From positions 4,017,320 to 4,081,319 of the forward strand of contig NZ_RAPN01000001.1 in assembly GCF_003610535.1 (NCBI RefSeq): DNA of 64,000 nucleotides. Direction: 5' to 3'. Positions 12,904 to 42,536 of this stretch are shown here, in pieces. The DNA is from Mangrovibacterium diazotrophicum. Lineage in GTDB: Bacteria; Bacteroidota; Bacteroidia; Bacteroidales; Prolixibacteraceae. Position 1 is the first letter of the stretch, and every line of letters starts with the position of its first letter. The translations under genes were made by a program, and so were the position numbers. The notes under the pieces are model-generated. The model made no database searches. It worked only from the letters and a program-made list of their open reading frames with translations, and was not told where the DNA came from.

Positions 12904-14232
12904 TTAATATTGCTTAACCAATTCGGAATCGCGGAAATAATGTTGCAGGATTTCTTGATAGCTGTAGCCTTTTTCGCCCATCACGGCAGCTCCGATCTGG
13001 CAAAGCCCAACGCCATGTCCCCAGCCCGCCCCGGTCAATACAAATTTTTGCGGGACTCCGTTCTCGATGTCCAAGTGGTCGATCACAAAAGCAGAACTGT
13101 ACAGGTGGCTCGTCGAAAGAGCCCGCCGAATTTCAAGCTCTTTTCCAATGATTTTGGTGCATGCGCTCCCAGTAATTTTTAGCTTGATGATTCGTCCCGA
13201 GTGACCGCGGCTGATGGCTTCCATGCTGATGATGTCGCCAAAATCAATCCCGGTTCGTTCGTGAATTAGTGTTGATAGTTCGGTTTGCGAATAGCTGACT
13301 TGCCAACGATAGAAATCCTGAGTTTTTTGGTCGAAGTCGGGTAGGACTTGTGATAACACTTGCTGATCCGTTGTGTTGCAGAAAGCGTTGGGAGATGTTC
13401 TGATCCAGTGCTCGGCTTCGTCCTCCCGGCGCAAATCCACGCAGGTGGTTGCTGCTTCTTCCGAGTCAACAATCTTGCTGAGGTACGGATGGTACACCGG
13501 CTCCCAGGCATTTTCAAAGTTCTCGGAAACACCGCCGCAGCATTTCGAAAAACGGGCGTCGCAAATGTTATTGTCGTACATCAAAAACTCGCCGAAAGTG
13601 GCATCAATGGCTTCATTGGCCTTGTCGCTGATGATTTTGGTGATTCCCTGGTAGCGCTGGCAATGGTCGTCGGCACACACGTCGAACAACGTATGGTCTT
13701 CCCGGTCGTACCAGCGGATTCGCTCGTCGGCCGTTTCAATGGTCGCCTGGTAGTTGGTTTGTTCGGTTTCGATTTTTTTGCTTTTCACAATTTGCGCCAT
13801 CAACCAGCTGCGCGAAATCACTGCGTGTGCTTTCAGCAGTTCGGGCGAACTGGTTGCACTCATTTCCGACGAGATGACCGAACGAAGATACTCTTCAAGC
13901 GGAACCACGTTCACGCCACGTACTTTTCCGTCTTCGATAATCAGTTTCAAGCTTCCCCGGAATTCCTGATCCTGCTTTTGTTCCCAATGAAAGTTGATAC
14001 CGATTGTCACGTCCTTCAGCAGGAAAGAAGCATCTGAACTTTTTGAGCCAAATTTGAATTCATTGGCCTTTTGCGTGTGACCACTTTCGTCAGTGAGCCA
14101 TAAATCTTCACCCCGTATTTCGACGGAGAATTTGATTCCGGAGCAACCGTCCGGTAATTGATAGTTGCCTTTTAATTCAAATTGAATCGTTGGTTCGGCC
14201 ATGATGCCGACTTGTATTTCGGGTTGATTCAT
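12904..14232 (-). CDS. SpoIID/LytB domain protein
   Basis: 442 residues from the ATG at 14230-14232 (MNQPEIQVGIMAEPTIQF); an upstream GTG at 14259 lies inside a hairpin and is less likely. SpoIID signatures are clear: VVPLEEYLRSVISSEM with the catalytic-type Glu of SEM, LLKAHAVISRSW, and near the end GAGWGHGVGLCQIGA. SpoIID is a lytic transglycosylase that cuts glycan strands already stripped of stem peptides. No signal peptide is visible, which is odd for a cell-wall enzyme and suggests action on imported fragments or an unusual export route. The Cys-rich middle (HCQRYQG, CCGGVSE) is typical of Bacteroidota members. Confidence 0.85.
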   Translation of the reverse strand: MNQPEIQVGIMAEPTIQFELKGNYQLPDGCSGIKFSVEIRGEDLWLTDESGHTQKANEFKFGSKSSDASFLLKDVTIGINFHWEQKQDQEFRGSLKLIIEDGKVRGVNVVPLEEYLRSVISSEMSATSSPELLKAHAVISRSWLMAQIVKSKKIETEQTNYQATIETADERIRWYDREDHTLFDVCADDHCQRYQGITKIISDKANEAIDATFGEFLMYDNNICDARFSKCCGGVSENFENAWEPVYHPYLSKIVDSEEAATTCVDLRREDEAEHWIRTSPNAFCNTTDQQVLSQVLPDFDQKTQDFYRWQVSYSQTELSTLIHERTGIDFGDIISMEAISRGHSGRIIKLKITGSACTKIIGKELEIRRALSTSHLYSSAFVIDHLDIENGVPQKFVLTGAGWGHGVGLCQIGAAVMGEKGYSYQEILQHYFRDSELVKQY

Positions 14233-14250
14233 TGGTTTAAAGTTTTTGTC

Positions 14251-14292
14251 CGATTTCACGCTAACCCCTCCCTAAAGGGTGGCGTGAAATCG
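14251..14292. repeat. Palindromic module, left of DUF559 gene
   Basis: Perfect 11-bp arms CGATTTCACGC (14251-14261) and GCGTGAAATCG (14282-14292) enclose a 20-nt core TAACCCCTCCCTAAAGGGTG (14262-14281). The core matches, in inverted orientation and at 16 of 20 positions, the core of the hairpin on the other side of the DUF559 gene. There is no T-run, so it is not a standard terminator. Confidence 0.75.
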
Positions 14293-14299
14293 ATGCAAT

Positions 14300-14692
14300 T
14301 CATGACTTCAGTCTTAGATTTATTTCTTCTTGGATTTTCAAAACAACAGATTCCAGGTTATTATTGACTTCTTCATTCGTGAATCGAATGGTTTTTATCC
14401 CAAGCCTTGCTAATTCACCTTCACGTCCCACATCGTACTCATGTTGTTCTTTTGATAAGTGGTATTCTCCATCAACTTCTATCGCAAGTCTGGCGGGATG
14501 GCAGTAAAAGTCGAGGATAAAAATATCCAATGGATGTTGTCTTCTGAATTTAACACCACATACCGTTGGATCCTTTAACTGATTCCACAACAAAGCCTCA
14601 GATTTTGTCATATTTTCCCGGAGAAGCGATGCTTTCTCAAAAAGATCAGGCTTTGCGCCAAAAAACATGGAAACTTTATCGTCGATGGACAT
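14300..14692 (-). CDS. DUF559 endonuclease-domain protein (Vsr-like fold)
   Basis: 130 residues from the ATG at 14690-14692; a TTG at 14701 adds three. Nearly the whole length is a DUF559 domain: LRENMTKSEALLWNQLKDP, VKFRRQHPLDIFILDFYC, LAIEVDGEYH. The family adopts the PD-(D/E)XK/Vsr-like nuclease fold, and the conserved Asp and Glu are present. Its job in the cell is unknown. It interrupts the SpoIID-DUF4922 gene pair, and both flanking intergenic gaps carry a matching hairpin module, as if gene and modules came in together. Confidence 0.85.
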   Translation of the reverse strand: MSIDDKVSMFFGAKPDLFEKASLLRENMTKSEALLWNQLKDPTVCGVKFRRQHPLDIFILDFYCHPARLAIEVDGEYHLSKEQHEYDVGREGELARLGIKTIRFTNEEVNNNLESVVLKIQEEINLRLKS

Positions 14693-14719
14693 GCAGTTCA
14701 ATTTAGTCTCAAGGTTGCC

Positions 14720-14765
14720 CTGATTTTTCTTTCTCCCTTTAGGGGTGGGGTAAAAGAAAAATCAG
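14720..14765. repeat. Palindromic module, right of DUF559 gene
   Basis: Perfect 13-bp arms CTGATTTTTCTTT (14720-14732) and AAAGAAAAATCAG (14753-14765) enclose a 20-nt core CTCCCTTTAGGGGTGGGGTA (14733-14752). Its reverse complement, TACCCCACCCCTAAAGGGAG, equals the left module core at 16 of 20 positions. The arm sequences of the two modules are unrelated although each is perfectly self-complementary. Confidence 0.75.
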
Positions 14766-14797
14766 ATTTTACCGATGCTTAATATAGTGAAAGTTTC

Positions 14798-15748
14798 TTA
14801 GTCAATTCCTTTGATTAGATTCTTCAAGTGTTTAAAAGCTGCATCATTCAAACTGACCTGCTTGTAAATATCGATAAAATCGGCAGAAGTTATTTTCTCA
14901 AAATCTTCCCTTCGGGGGAGGATTGCCAGGCCTCCCATTTCAACCGAGGCCGGGCTCATCAGAATTTGCTCGCTTCCTTCCTTAAAATATTGGCAAGGGC
15001 GCTGTCTTTCGCGCGGAAAGAGTAGTACTTGCCATTGCCCGTTTTCAAAGTTGGCGAGTATATTCATCATCGGCTCATCATCGTTTTCGTTTTTGGGTAA
15101 CAAGCCCAAAACTCGTTCGACAAACAGAATTAACTCGGTTGAATCAGTCGACGTGAATACAATCAATTTTCGAAGGTAGACTTCATCCAACGCGTAAACC
15201 TGTGTTGAGTTGAGATTTGCAAGTTGTTCGGCTTTTGATTCCAGTCGTTTTGTTACCTCCCGGTCAACAGGCATTACATTTTTTCCTCCGGCCTGAAAAT
15301 GAAAATGGTCTGGGGCCGAAGCACCGCACTTTGGGCCGTTGTAAAATAGCGTGAAATCAGGCAAGGCCTCAGCGAGCACCAGCATATCCAAAAGTCGTCC
15401 TTCGAAATGTTGAGGCACATGTTCGTAGCCAACAATGGTCAGGTGCTTTTCGAAAATCGGGTAAGGGTTGATGAGAACCTCATATTTGCCTTGGAAATCC
15501 ACCCCGGCCTGTTCGGTCGGGCGATTGCTTTTGCACAAAAAACAGGGACGTTCACTAATCGATGTTCGGTCGGTTTTAGCGGCAGACGAGTGAATTCGTC
15601 CGGGGTTGAACTGAGCTACAATTTGAAAATCGTCGAACTGGAAGCTGCGTTTTTCGACGCTGGCCAGATCGTCGTAATTTTTCCGCGCCAGCTTCCATTC
15701 TCGGGTTTGCTGATTGATTAATTTGTCTATCTGTACGGCTAGTTTCAA
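14798..15748 (-). CDS. DUF4922 protein (HIT/GalT-like nucleotidyl transferase fold)
   Basis: 316 residues. The start appears to be TTG at 15746-15748, since no ATG occurs for many codons and homologues begin just before the IDKLINQQ segment. Features: QFNPGRIHSSAAKTD, a CFLCKSNRP cysteine pair, and PDHFHFQAG, an HxHxQ-type motif as in HIT/galactose-1-phosphate uridylyltransferase enzymes. DUF4922 genes commonly lie with SpoIID and peptidoglycan-related genes in Bacteroidota. A nucleotide-sugar phosphorylase or transferase reaction is possible but unproven. The stop of the GT2 gene is 22 bp upstream, so the two are probably co-transcribed. Confidence 0.75.
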   Translation of the reverse strand: MKLAVQIDKLINQQTREWKLARKNYDDLASVEKRSFQFDDFQIVAQFNPGRIHSSAAKTDRTSISERPCFLCKSNRPTEQAGVDFQGKYEVLINPYPIFEKHLTIVGYEHVPQHFEGRLLDMLVLAEALPDFTLFYNGPKCGASAPDHFHFQAGGKNVMPVDREVTKRLESKAEQLANLNSTQVYALDEVYLRKLIVFTSTDSTELILFVERVLGLLPKNENDDEPMMNILANFENGQWQVLLFPRERQRPCQYFKEGSEQILMSPASVEMGGLAILPRREDFEKITSADFIDIYKQVSLNDAAFKHLKNLIKGID

Positions 15749-42496: not shown

Positions 42497-42536
42497 AAAG
42501 TCCGCTATCCCGAAATGGGTAGCGGACTTTTTTTAT
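42497..42536 (+). terminator. Intrinsic terminator after the Cbp1-like gene
   Basis: AAAGTCCGCTA (42497-42507) pairs with TAGCGGACTTT (42520-42530), with an inner CCC/GGG and a T-run to 42536. Probably also serves the converging dihydroorotase gene. Confidence 0.88.

What the first reader, a model, noticed from the sequence alone, without database searches (positions are those of the whole stretch)
14251..14765. DUF559 gene framed by inverted 20-nt cores, each inside a perfect hairpin with unrelated arms
Seen: left core TAACCCCTCCCTAAAGGGTG and the reverse complement of the right core TACCCCACCCCTAAAGGGAG are both exactly 20 nt and agree at 16 positions. Each is enclosed by perfectly complementary arms (11 and 13 bp) whose sequences have nothing in common. 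Together they enclose one gene for a Vsr/PD-(D/E)XK-fold protein that splits the SpoIID-DUF4922 pair. Inference: a minimal mobile unit of nuclease plus short inverted ends that inserts into, or creates, palindromes, perhaps like REP/RAYT or homing systems. I recall CCCTAAAGGG-type sequences beside DUF559 genes in other Bacteroidota, but I could not check this. I know of no described mechanism.
Basis: partly seen in the sequence, partly recalled or inferred. Interest (0 to 1): 0.72.

Follow-up and report, generated by a model that had tools for sequence, protein, structure and literature searches.

The report
Nuclease element with hairpin ends
A small gene for a DNA-cutting enzyme sits between two folded DNA ends related to repeats scattered through many bacterial genomes, which suggests that this enzyme helps those repeats to spread.

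Summary
In detail: a DUF559 (Vsr-like nuclease) gene lies between two inverted 20-nt cores, each inside perfect, mutually unrelated arms of 11 and 13 bp. In four related genes longer palindromes stand at the same place (TACCCCAAACCCC-N4-GGGG; CCCC-N4-GGGGATTTAGGGG). Palindromes of this kind flank DUF559 genes that I read in Bacteroidota, Chloroflexota, Cyanobacteria, Deinococcus and Proteobacteria, including E. coli ycjD. They resemble the known BoxC/PIT/"intrastrand triplex" repeats, for which the one paper I read reports no mobility gene. DUF559 also lies in frame inside IleRS, ValRS, LeuRS, HisF and RimM. In IleRS, insert relatedness is decoupled from host relatedness, so the unit moves. 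A nuclease profile hits a mobile-intron protein (3r3p). Best reading: a roughly 490-bp nuclease-only mobile unit with BoxC-type ends, working like REPIN/RAYT or homing elements but with another enzyme. In one Weeksellaceae genome the arms travel with the ends; whether the window's arms are inherited or newly grown is unresolved. Insertion into existing palindromes is not supported. Against: automatic detectors miss many loci, the window's included, and one genome has 29 end copies without DUF559. No cutting or movement was tested.

The parts
14262..14752 (-). DUF559 element body, TACCCC...GGGGTTA on the minus strand: core, gene, core (about 490 bp)
   Evidence: alignment with L001, L063, L107, L112
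14300..14692 (-). gene for a DUF559 (Vsr-like, EDxHD-like) nuclease; ORF open to TTG 14701, likely start ATG about 14692
14733..14752 (-). upstream core TACCCCACCCCTAAAGGGAG (upstream end of the element)
   Evidence: same place as ACCCCAAACCCCTGAAGGGGC in relatives
14262..14281 (-). downstream core CACCCTTTAGGGAGGGGTTA (downstream end of the element)
   Evidence: same place as CCCCTTTAGGGGATTTAGGGGT in relatives
14720..14732 (.). inner arm of the upstream hairpin
14753..14765 (.). outer arm of the upstream hairpin
14282..14292 (.). inner arm of the downstream hairpin
14251..14261 (.). outer arm of the downstream hairpin; two compensatory double changes and one break in G104

Best explanation
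The locus is a member of a very widespread nuclease-only mobile unit. One gene for a DUF559 nuclease is framed by inverted ends that correspond to BoxC/PIT/triplex-type palindromes (C-run, C-run, loop, G-run, with the first C-run outermost). Shown here: the linkage of such ends with DUF559 genes in several phyla; the correspondence of the window's cores with those ends; in-frame insertion at a fixed site in IleRS, with empty sites and gene-less scars; insert history independent of host history; gene-less double-end copies in this genome; and a significant profile match of the nuclease to a mobile-intron protein. Inferred: the nuclease nicks or cuts target DNA, and host repair copies the unit or its gene-less derivatives into the break, the hairpin ends serving as recognition or priming structures. 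Also inferred, and less certain: long arms arise and stay matched when the 3' end of a nascent strand folds back on the CCC/GGG core and copies the flank (template switching at a quasi-palindrome).
For: Linkage: 46 up and 67 down of 96 domains against 27 of 535 distant windows; strict triplex motif at 50 of 96 against 3 of 119, and 29 of 83 against 14 of 1531; looser motif at 57 of 96 against 4 of 183, and 55 of 79 against 27 of 1697; 8 of 8 plasmid or megaplasmid loci on both sides by eye, 6 of 8 by the looser motif; E. coli ycjD downstream. Corresponding cores in L001, L063, L107, L112. DN-type end: 503 copies in 140 family genomes, 16 in this one, 1 for the reversed control; present in 71 of 98 genomes with DUF559 and 15 of 42 without, Fisher 6e-5. 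IleRS: 12 full-length frames of 1288-1314 aa, other complete frames about 1143-1208; 20 empty sites and 2 scars. Host against insert identity over 36 pairs: rho 0.03, p 0.84. ValRS inserts nested among IleRS inserts. Profile hit 3r3p 'Mobile intron protein', E 4.3e-6.
Against: No experiment. G124 carries 29 end copies but no DUF559, and 15 of 42 genomes without DUF559 have some. The looser detector finds nothing at 39 of 96 domains in the family set (the window's among them), 24 of 79 in the named set and 15 of 27 in nine further genomes, where distant windows ring in 7 of 100. Opposite orientation is common: upstream 28 proper against 33 opposite (family) and 36 against 26 (named), downstream 48 against 36 and 44 against 26. 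The window's cores do not reach the triplex definition. No clean DNA-level empty site was found for the window copy: G105 and G106 lack it, but their spacer is too diverged to align. No target-site duplication was seen. I know of no DUF559 protein shown to join DNA ends (recall). By single sequence 3r3p scores only E 0.098.
Confidence: 0.6

Rival explanations
1. DUF559 is a passenger: the BoxC-type repeats are moved or amplified by something else (replication slippage, recombination, another enzyme), and a small nuclease gene was captured between two repeats early on and is carried along.
For: Repeats without DUF559 exist (G124: 29 copies). Holder 2015 (PMC4666352; abstract, sections 15, 18, 19 and part 1 of 20 read) ties the repeats to genomic instability and reports no mobility activities nearby.
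Against: The same gene family stands between such ends in several phyla; the ends lie at near-constant distances in many relatives; in-frame units in aaRS genes carry the gene; the profile hits a mobile-intron protein.
Confidence: 0.2
2. The hairpins are transcription terminators or mRNA-stability structures of neighbouring genes, and the arms are kept by selection on RNA.
For: Co-directional genes on both sides; two compensatory double changes in the left arms of G104.
Against: Ends of the same kind lie inside open frames of IleRS and ValRS; no long T-run follows the stems; PIT elements are reported to lack promoter and terminator activity (passage in PMC4666352).
Confidence: 0.08
3. The unit inserts into pre-existing palindromes; the arms are target DNA.
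For: Arms at the two ends of the window copy are unrelated.
Against: In G140 the same arms recur at several places, for two of three types with unrelated outer flanks (by eye); in 21 loci of a related clade the arms next to the scored cores are at most 6 bp, save one of 8 at a more distant core.
Confidence: 0.05
4. DUF559 works here as a repair or defence nuclease, such as a Vsr-like mismatch nicking enzyme, and its spread is ordinary horizontal transfer by recombination at repeats.
For: Caulobacter VsrA contains a DUF559 domain, and the DNA damage response of cells lacking the methyltransferase ScmA depends on it (PMC12907096, passages). Weak PADLOC hits to DpdF and a type II enzyme.
Against: Does not by itself explain in-frame copies inside aaRS genes, gene-less double-end copies or the shared ends.
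Confidence: 0.15

Closest known systems
BoxC / PIT / TM intrastrand-triplex repeats (Holder et al. 2015, PMC4666352; abstract, sections 15, 18, 19 and part 1 of 20 read)
   Same: Palindromes with a third C- or G-run; in E. coli K-12 five close inverted pairs always combine type A with type B; E. coli ycjD (DUF559) carries such a repeat downstream.
   Different: The paper reports no mobility gene; here such palindromes are the ends of DUF559 units. The window's cores are shorter and sit inside long arms.
REPIN/RAYT (REP with TnpA-REP, HUH tyrosine transposase)
   Same: Hairpin ends around one gene, plus gene-less double-hairpin copies (REPIN architecture recalled).
   Different: The gene is DUF559, not an HUH enzyme; the ends differ from GTAG- and CGTC-tagged REPs (PMC3733652, passages).
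EDxHD homing endonucleases (I-Bth0305I)
   Same: Profile match to 3r3p 'Mobile intron protein'; a review describes the EDxHD family (PMC3943268, passages). One paper already places a DUF559 gene in the EDxHD family (PMC9403480, passages).
   Different: No intron or intein seen; the unit has its own palindromic ends, can be translated in frame and also sits between genes. That 3r3p is I-Bth0305I is recalled.
Rickettsia palindromic elements (RPE)
   Same: Palindromic inserts translated in frame inside protein genes (recalled).
   Different: RPEs carry no nuclease gene (recalled); not compared by sequence.

Membership tests
DUF559 (PF04480) | profile match over the curated cut-off | tested here: met
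   106.3 bits against 20.6
DUF559 (PF04480) | conserved acidic/His nuclease residues | tested here: met
   E35, W39, Q55, D64, F65, E75, D77, G78, H81, D90 invariant in 56 sequences, the window's first
BoxC/PIT/TM triplex repeat | three-block mirror plus hairpin of at least 6 triads | tested here: not met
   window cores have a 3-bp CCC/GGG stem and fail even the looser automatic motif (L003 missing); downstream ends of 46 of 96 family domains pass the strict one
BoxC/PIT/TM triplex repeat | correspondence of the window's cores with such repeats | tested here: met
   aligned at the same place in L001, L063, L107, L112
REP/RAYT | HUH Y1 transposase between the hairpins | tested here: not met
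   the only gene inside matches DUF559 and, below cut-off, MTES_1575
EDxHD homing endonuclease | nuclease-domain homology | tested here: met
   3r3p E 4.3e-6 by profile; single sequence only 0.098
EDxHD homing endonuclease | host intron or intein | tested here: not met
   no splicing domain among the Pfam matches of the window protein or of ten fused proteins from other loci
EDxHD homing endonuclease | fixed insertion site in a host gene with empty alleles | tested here: met
   IleRS copies of the family: 20 empty, 9 distinct filled, 2 scars; 6 of 39 rows not read. Not shown for the window copy itself
EDxHD homing endonuclease | cutting of the empty site | not testable with these tools
   needs protein
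IS/MITE with target-site duplication | short direct repeats at the borders | tested here: inconclusive
   no direct repeat of 12 nt or more at 14100-14900; shorter ones not excluded

The most novel reading that the evidence does not exclude
DUF559 units are the autonomous drivers of the BoxC/PIT/triplex repeats of bacteria. They would be a class of mobile element run by a Vsr/EDxHD-type nuclease alone, with hairpin or triplex ends. It homes in frame into essential genes (IleRS, ValRS, LeuRS, HisF, RimM), sheds gene-less double-hairpin copies, and carries, and perhaps grows, perfect palindromic arms by fold-back synthesis at its ends.
Probability: 0.42. Interest if true: 0.88.

Novelty: new variant of a known kind. 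Interest (0 to 1): 0.77.

Why it matters
BoxC-type repeats were found in E. coli in the 1990s (PMC4666352, passage), and that paper reports no mobility gene near them. DUF559 is a very common gene family with no agreed role. If they belong together, both questions become directly testable in E. coli K-12, where ycjD and the repeat coexist. It would also add a nuclease-only route of mobility and explain nuclease domains found inside essential tRNA synthetases.

Tried and rejected
Insertion into existing palindromes: disfavoured, because arms recur with the ends in G140. The pattern search behind that is weak as a count: 15 hits in G140 against 9 for the reversed control at up to one mismatch; the point rests on the hairpins read by eye. 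A classical transposase or HUH enzyme: none in the unit. Empty site of the window copy: G105 and G106 lack gene and hairpins, but the spacer is too diverged to place the borders. E. coli as a source of empty sites: ycjD is polymorphic (a place covering at least 80% of the query in 3333 of 5426 genomes), but in the two strains without it that I opened an efflux operon stands next to fabI. At tkt-ypfG the BoxC copy stands where the five other strains fetched have REP sequence, so there is no clean empty site. The arm of the window's right hairpin is not found elsewhere in the genome as more than chance: 181 matches at up to 3 mismatches against 159 for the reversed control. CGTC-type REPs (said to lack a transposase, PMC3733652, passages) were looked for by eye beside eight plasmid DUF559 genes; BoxC-type ends were found instead.

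A weakened inference: I first took the window's arms as newly grown, because in 14 of 21 and 17 of 22 scored relatives the ends lie 24 and 10-14 nt closer to the gene. The tree does not place the window protein inside that clade, and arm-bearing relatives (L158, L160, L136) lie in the same unresolved fork, so the arms may be inherited. The 97% own pairing is largely by construction, since only hairpins whose arms pair were kept; the informative figure is the 35% cross pairing.

My two looser motif detectors are post hoc; (stem of 6 or more) rings less: 40 of 96, 38 of 79, 11 of 27 and 7 of 8. The nine further genomes ring in only 12 of 27, so automatic support there is weak. Literature searches; in their listings I saw no paper linking DUF559 with these repeats; the held open-access library lacks most subscription journals.

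Full report
THE OBSERVATION. The two hairpins are exactly as described: arms of 11 and 13 bp, cores of 20 nt that agree at 16 of 20 positions in inverted orientation, and one DUF559 gene between them (PF04480, E 1e-30), between SpoIID and DUF4922 genes. CCCTWWAGGG occurs twice in 64 kb, both times here (mean 0.11 in shuffles). Six perfect hairpins with arms of at least 11 bp exist in the window against 0.75 expected (40 shuffles), two of them here.

IT IS NOT A LOCAL CURIOSITY. The genome has two more DUF559 genes, both flanked by related palindromes. Of 140 genomes of the same family, 98 have DUF559. The family set below is 93 loci with 96 domains: the 3 of this genome, the 30 loci returned, and 60 stretches that I picked from its capped list of places, mostly free-standing genes, before looking at their flanks. 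A CCC-N4-GGG core lies within 200 bp upstream of 46, downstream of 67 and on both sides of 41 of the 96, against 27 of 535 windows more than 600 bp away. With a strict triplex-type motif (two mirrored pyrimidine blocks and a purine block) it is 50 of 96 against 3 of 119 distant windows. With a looser motif it is 57 of 96 against 4 of 183, and 55 of 79 against 27 of 1697. In nine further genomes it rings in only 12 of 27, with 7 of 100 distant windows. The strict motif prefers the orientation with the third block outermost downstream (46 against 15 in the family set, 24 against 9 in the named set), less so upstream (16 against 10 in each). The looser motif is less clear: upstream 28 against 33 and 36 against 26, downstream 48 against 36 and 44 against 26. 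By eye, most of the named loci that the strict test misses carry variants, but not all. All eight plasmid or megaplasmid loci fetched (Neisseria gonorrhoeae, Azospirillum, Sinorhizobium, Sphingomonas, Novosphingobium, Sphingobium, Picosynechococcus, Deinococcus; 8 of the 43 records) have such palindromes on both sides by eye; the looser motif finds 6 of the 8. The cyanobacterial plasmid even has the Bacteroidota sequence CCCCTAAATCCCC-N4-GGGGACTTT.

THE REPEATS HAVE A NAME. E. coli K-12 ycjD is annotated as DUF559. Downstream of it stands CCCCTCGCCCCTCTGGGGAGAGGGTTAGGGTGAGGGG, which passes the strict motif with one mismatch in each part. I take it as a copy of the BoxC/PIT/TM repeat that Holder et al. 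2015 describe as an intrastrand-triplex motif, 23 copies in K-12, with five close inverted pairs that always join type A to type B. They report no mobility activities near the repeats (PMC4666352: abstract, passages, sections 15, 18, 19 and part 1 of 20 read). The identification rests on the sequence, the loop TTA named for type A, and recollection of BoxC; the paper's Table 1 was not seen. The held library lists 14 papers with DUF559, none evidently on repeats by title, and no paper combining DUF559 with inverted repeats or ycjD with palindromic.

THE WINDOW'S CORES CORRESPOND TO THESE ENDS. Aligned with four relatives (L001, L063, L107, L112), the upstream core TACCCCA--CCCCTAAAGGGAG stands opposite ACCCCAAACCCCTGAAGGGGC, and the downstream core CACCCTTTAGGG-----AGGGGTTA opposite CCCCTTTAGGGGATTTAGGGGT. 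The right core also resembles the arm-bearing ends of genome G140 (CTCCCTTTAGGGTAGGGGTAAAA). The window's cores themselves have only a 3-bp CCC/GGG stem and fail the automatic motifs.

WHERE THE ARMS COME FROM. In a clade of 28 related genes (26 loci, chosen from the tree), the upstream end lies 58-63 nt from the domain in 14 of 21 scored genes and the downstream end 33-37 nt in 17 of 22; in the window the distances are 85 and 47. In the 21 of these loci that one search also scored, arms beside the core are at most 6 bp, save one of 8 at a more distant core. That would fit arms added inside the ends of the window copy. But the tree does not place the window protein in that clade, and arm-bearing relatives (L158, L160, L136) share its unresolved fork, so the arms may as well be inherited. 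In sister species G104 both hairpins survive although the gene is gone apart from short stubs; its left arms differ from the window's by two compensatory double changes and one break (10 of 11 pairs kept). In 16 arm-bearing hairpins, picked because their arms pair, exchanging arms between hairpins drops pairing from 97% to 35%, with 7 of 240 exchanges at 90% or more: the arms differ, each matched to its own partner. In G140 three arm types each recur at two or three places; for two types the DNA outside is unrelated between copies, while the two copies of the third share their flanks (by eye). There the arms are carried with the ends. Flavobacterium palustre (L160) and G140 (L158) have the same arms at both ends of the gene; L137 has unrelated arms, as in the window. 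My inference is that arms grow and stay matched by fold-back copying at the core. Long arms near DUF559 genes are about twice as frequent as elsewhere (63 of 355 against 157 of 2098 segments).

THE UNIT MOVES. A DN-type end pattern has 503 copies in the 140 genomes, 16 in this one, and 1 for the reversed pattern. It is present in 71 of 98 genomes with DUF559 and 15 of 42 without (Fisher 6e-5; related genomes are not independent); G124 has 29 copies and no DUF559. Gene-less double-end copies are seen in this genome. DUF559 lies in frame inside IleRS, ValRS and a type ISP restriction gene in this family, and in LeuRS, HisF/HisA, RimM and an MmeI-like gene elsewhere. In IleRS the site is fixed: after YAQxxYPF(E) and before FPADFIAEG. 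Twelve genomes have full frames of 1288-1314 aa, and three more inserts lie in fragments at contig ends (G018, G033, G042); other complete frames have about 1143-1208 aa. Of 39 rows looked at (two genomes twice) 33 could be read: 20 empty sites, 9 distinct filled ones and 2 short in-frame scars, one of which keeps the right palindrome without the gene. Across nine filled genes, host (450 aa after the insert) and insert identity are uncorrelated (36 pairs, rho 0.03, p 0.84). G017 and G002, of one genus, share 90% in the host but 53% in the insert; G072 and G002, of two genera, share 80% and 75%. In a tree of 189 domains, the IleRS inserts and five ValRS inserts of this family form one clade (98/86), with ValRS inserts on two branches inside it (one strongly joined group of four, and L021 with weak support); the 11 HisF inserts form another (91/78). 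The tree has 108 columns and its bootstrap had not settled.

THE ENZYME. Ten residues are invariant in 56 sequences, among them E75-x-D77-G-x-x-H81 and D90. A profile finds 3hrl 'Endonuclease-Like Protein' (E 3.9e-32) and 3r3p 'Mobile intron protein' (E 4.3e-6). By single sequence the second is only 0.098. That 3r3p is the EDxHD homing endonuclease I-Bth0305I is recalled; a cyanobacterial genome paper already assigns a DUF559 gene to EDxHD (PMC9403480, passages). In Caulobacter a protein with a DUF559 domain, VsrA, is needed for the DNA damage response of cells lacking the methyltransferase ScmA (PMC12907096, passages).

MECHANISM AND LIMITS. The most likely account is a nuclease that cuts or nicks target DNA, repair that copies the unit or a gene-less pair of ends into the gap, and hairpin ends that are recognised or act as primers. 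Only the linkage, the insertion polymorphism, the decoupled histories and the sequence kinship of the enzyme are shown. Cutting, target choice, copying and arm growth are inferred. The window copy itself has no alignable empty site, and no target-site duplication was seen. The claim 'works like REPIN/RAYT or a homing element' is stronger than 'is one': the HUH enzyme of RAYTs and the intron or intein of classical homing genes were both not found.

Noticed in passing
L284 (own genome C1:3114000-3132000): Two DUF559 genes about 60% identical to the window's lie in an array of many CCC-N4-GGG repeats on both sides of a 1050-aa frame.
   Followed up: partly
L285 16376-17695 (own genome C6): Three double-hairpin, gene-less units, about 63 nt long in two of them, spaced 831 and 465 nt apart inside a longer repeated stretch.
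   Followed up: partly
G124 (unnamed family member): 29 copies of the DN-type end but no PF04480 match: a lost driver or another enzyme.
   Followed up: no
L114 2541-3335 (E. coli K-12 ycjD): A perfect 17-bp hairpin without a C/G core stands just upstream of ycjD, and part of the end of the gene is repeated downstream beside a decayed repeat.
   Followed up: no
L281 and L280 (Sphingobium, Novosphingobium plasmids): A second, variable hairpin sits between the outer C-run and the conserved stem of the end, a possible parallel to the arms in the window (by eye).
   Followed up: no
L123, L134, L135, L148, L152, L167, L172, L177, L184, L186, L187: DUF559 fused to the N-terminus of HisF (HisA-like in L148) in Pedobacter, Mucilaginibacter and relatives, one clade in the tree (Pfam checked for L123 and L148 only).
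   Followed up: partly
L143, L082, L088, L089: Neighbouring DUF559 copies: three in L143; two each in L082, L088 and L089, the last pair with equal scores.
   Followed up: no
window 42497-42530; also 22522, 38260, 6079: Other perfect hairpins in the window with arms of 11-16 bp, one with a TCCCGAAATGGG loop.
   Followed up: no
L211, L212 (two E. coli strains without a ycjD match next to fabI): A TetR/RND efflux operon stands next to fabI where K-12 has ycjD.
   Followed up: no
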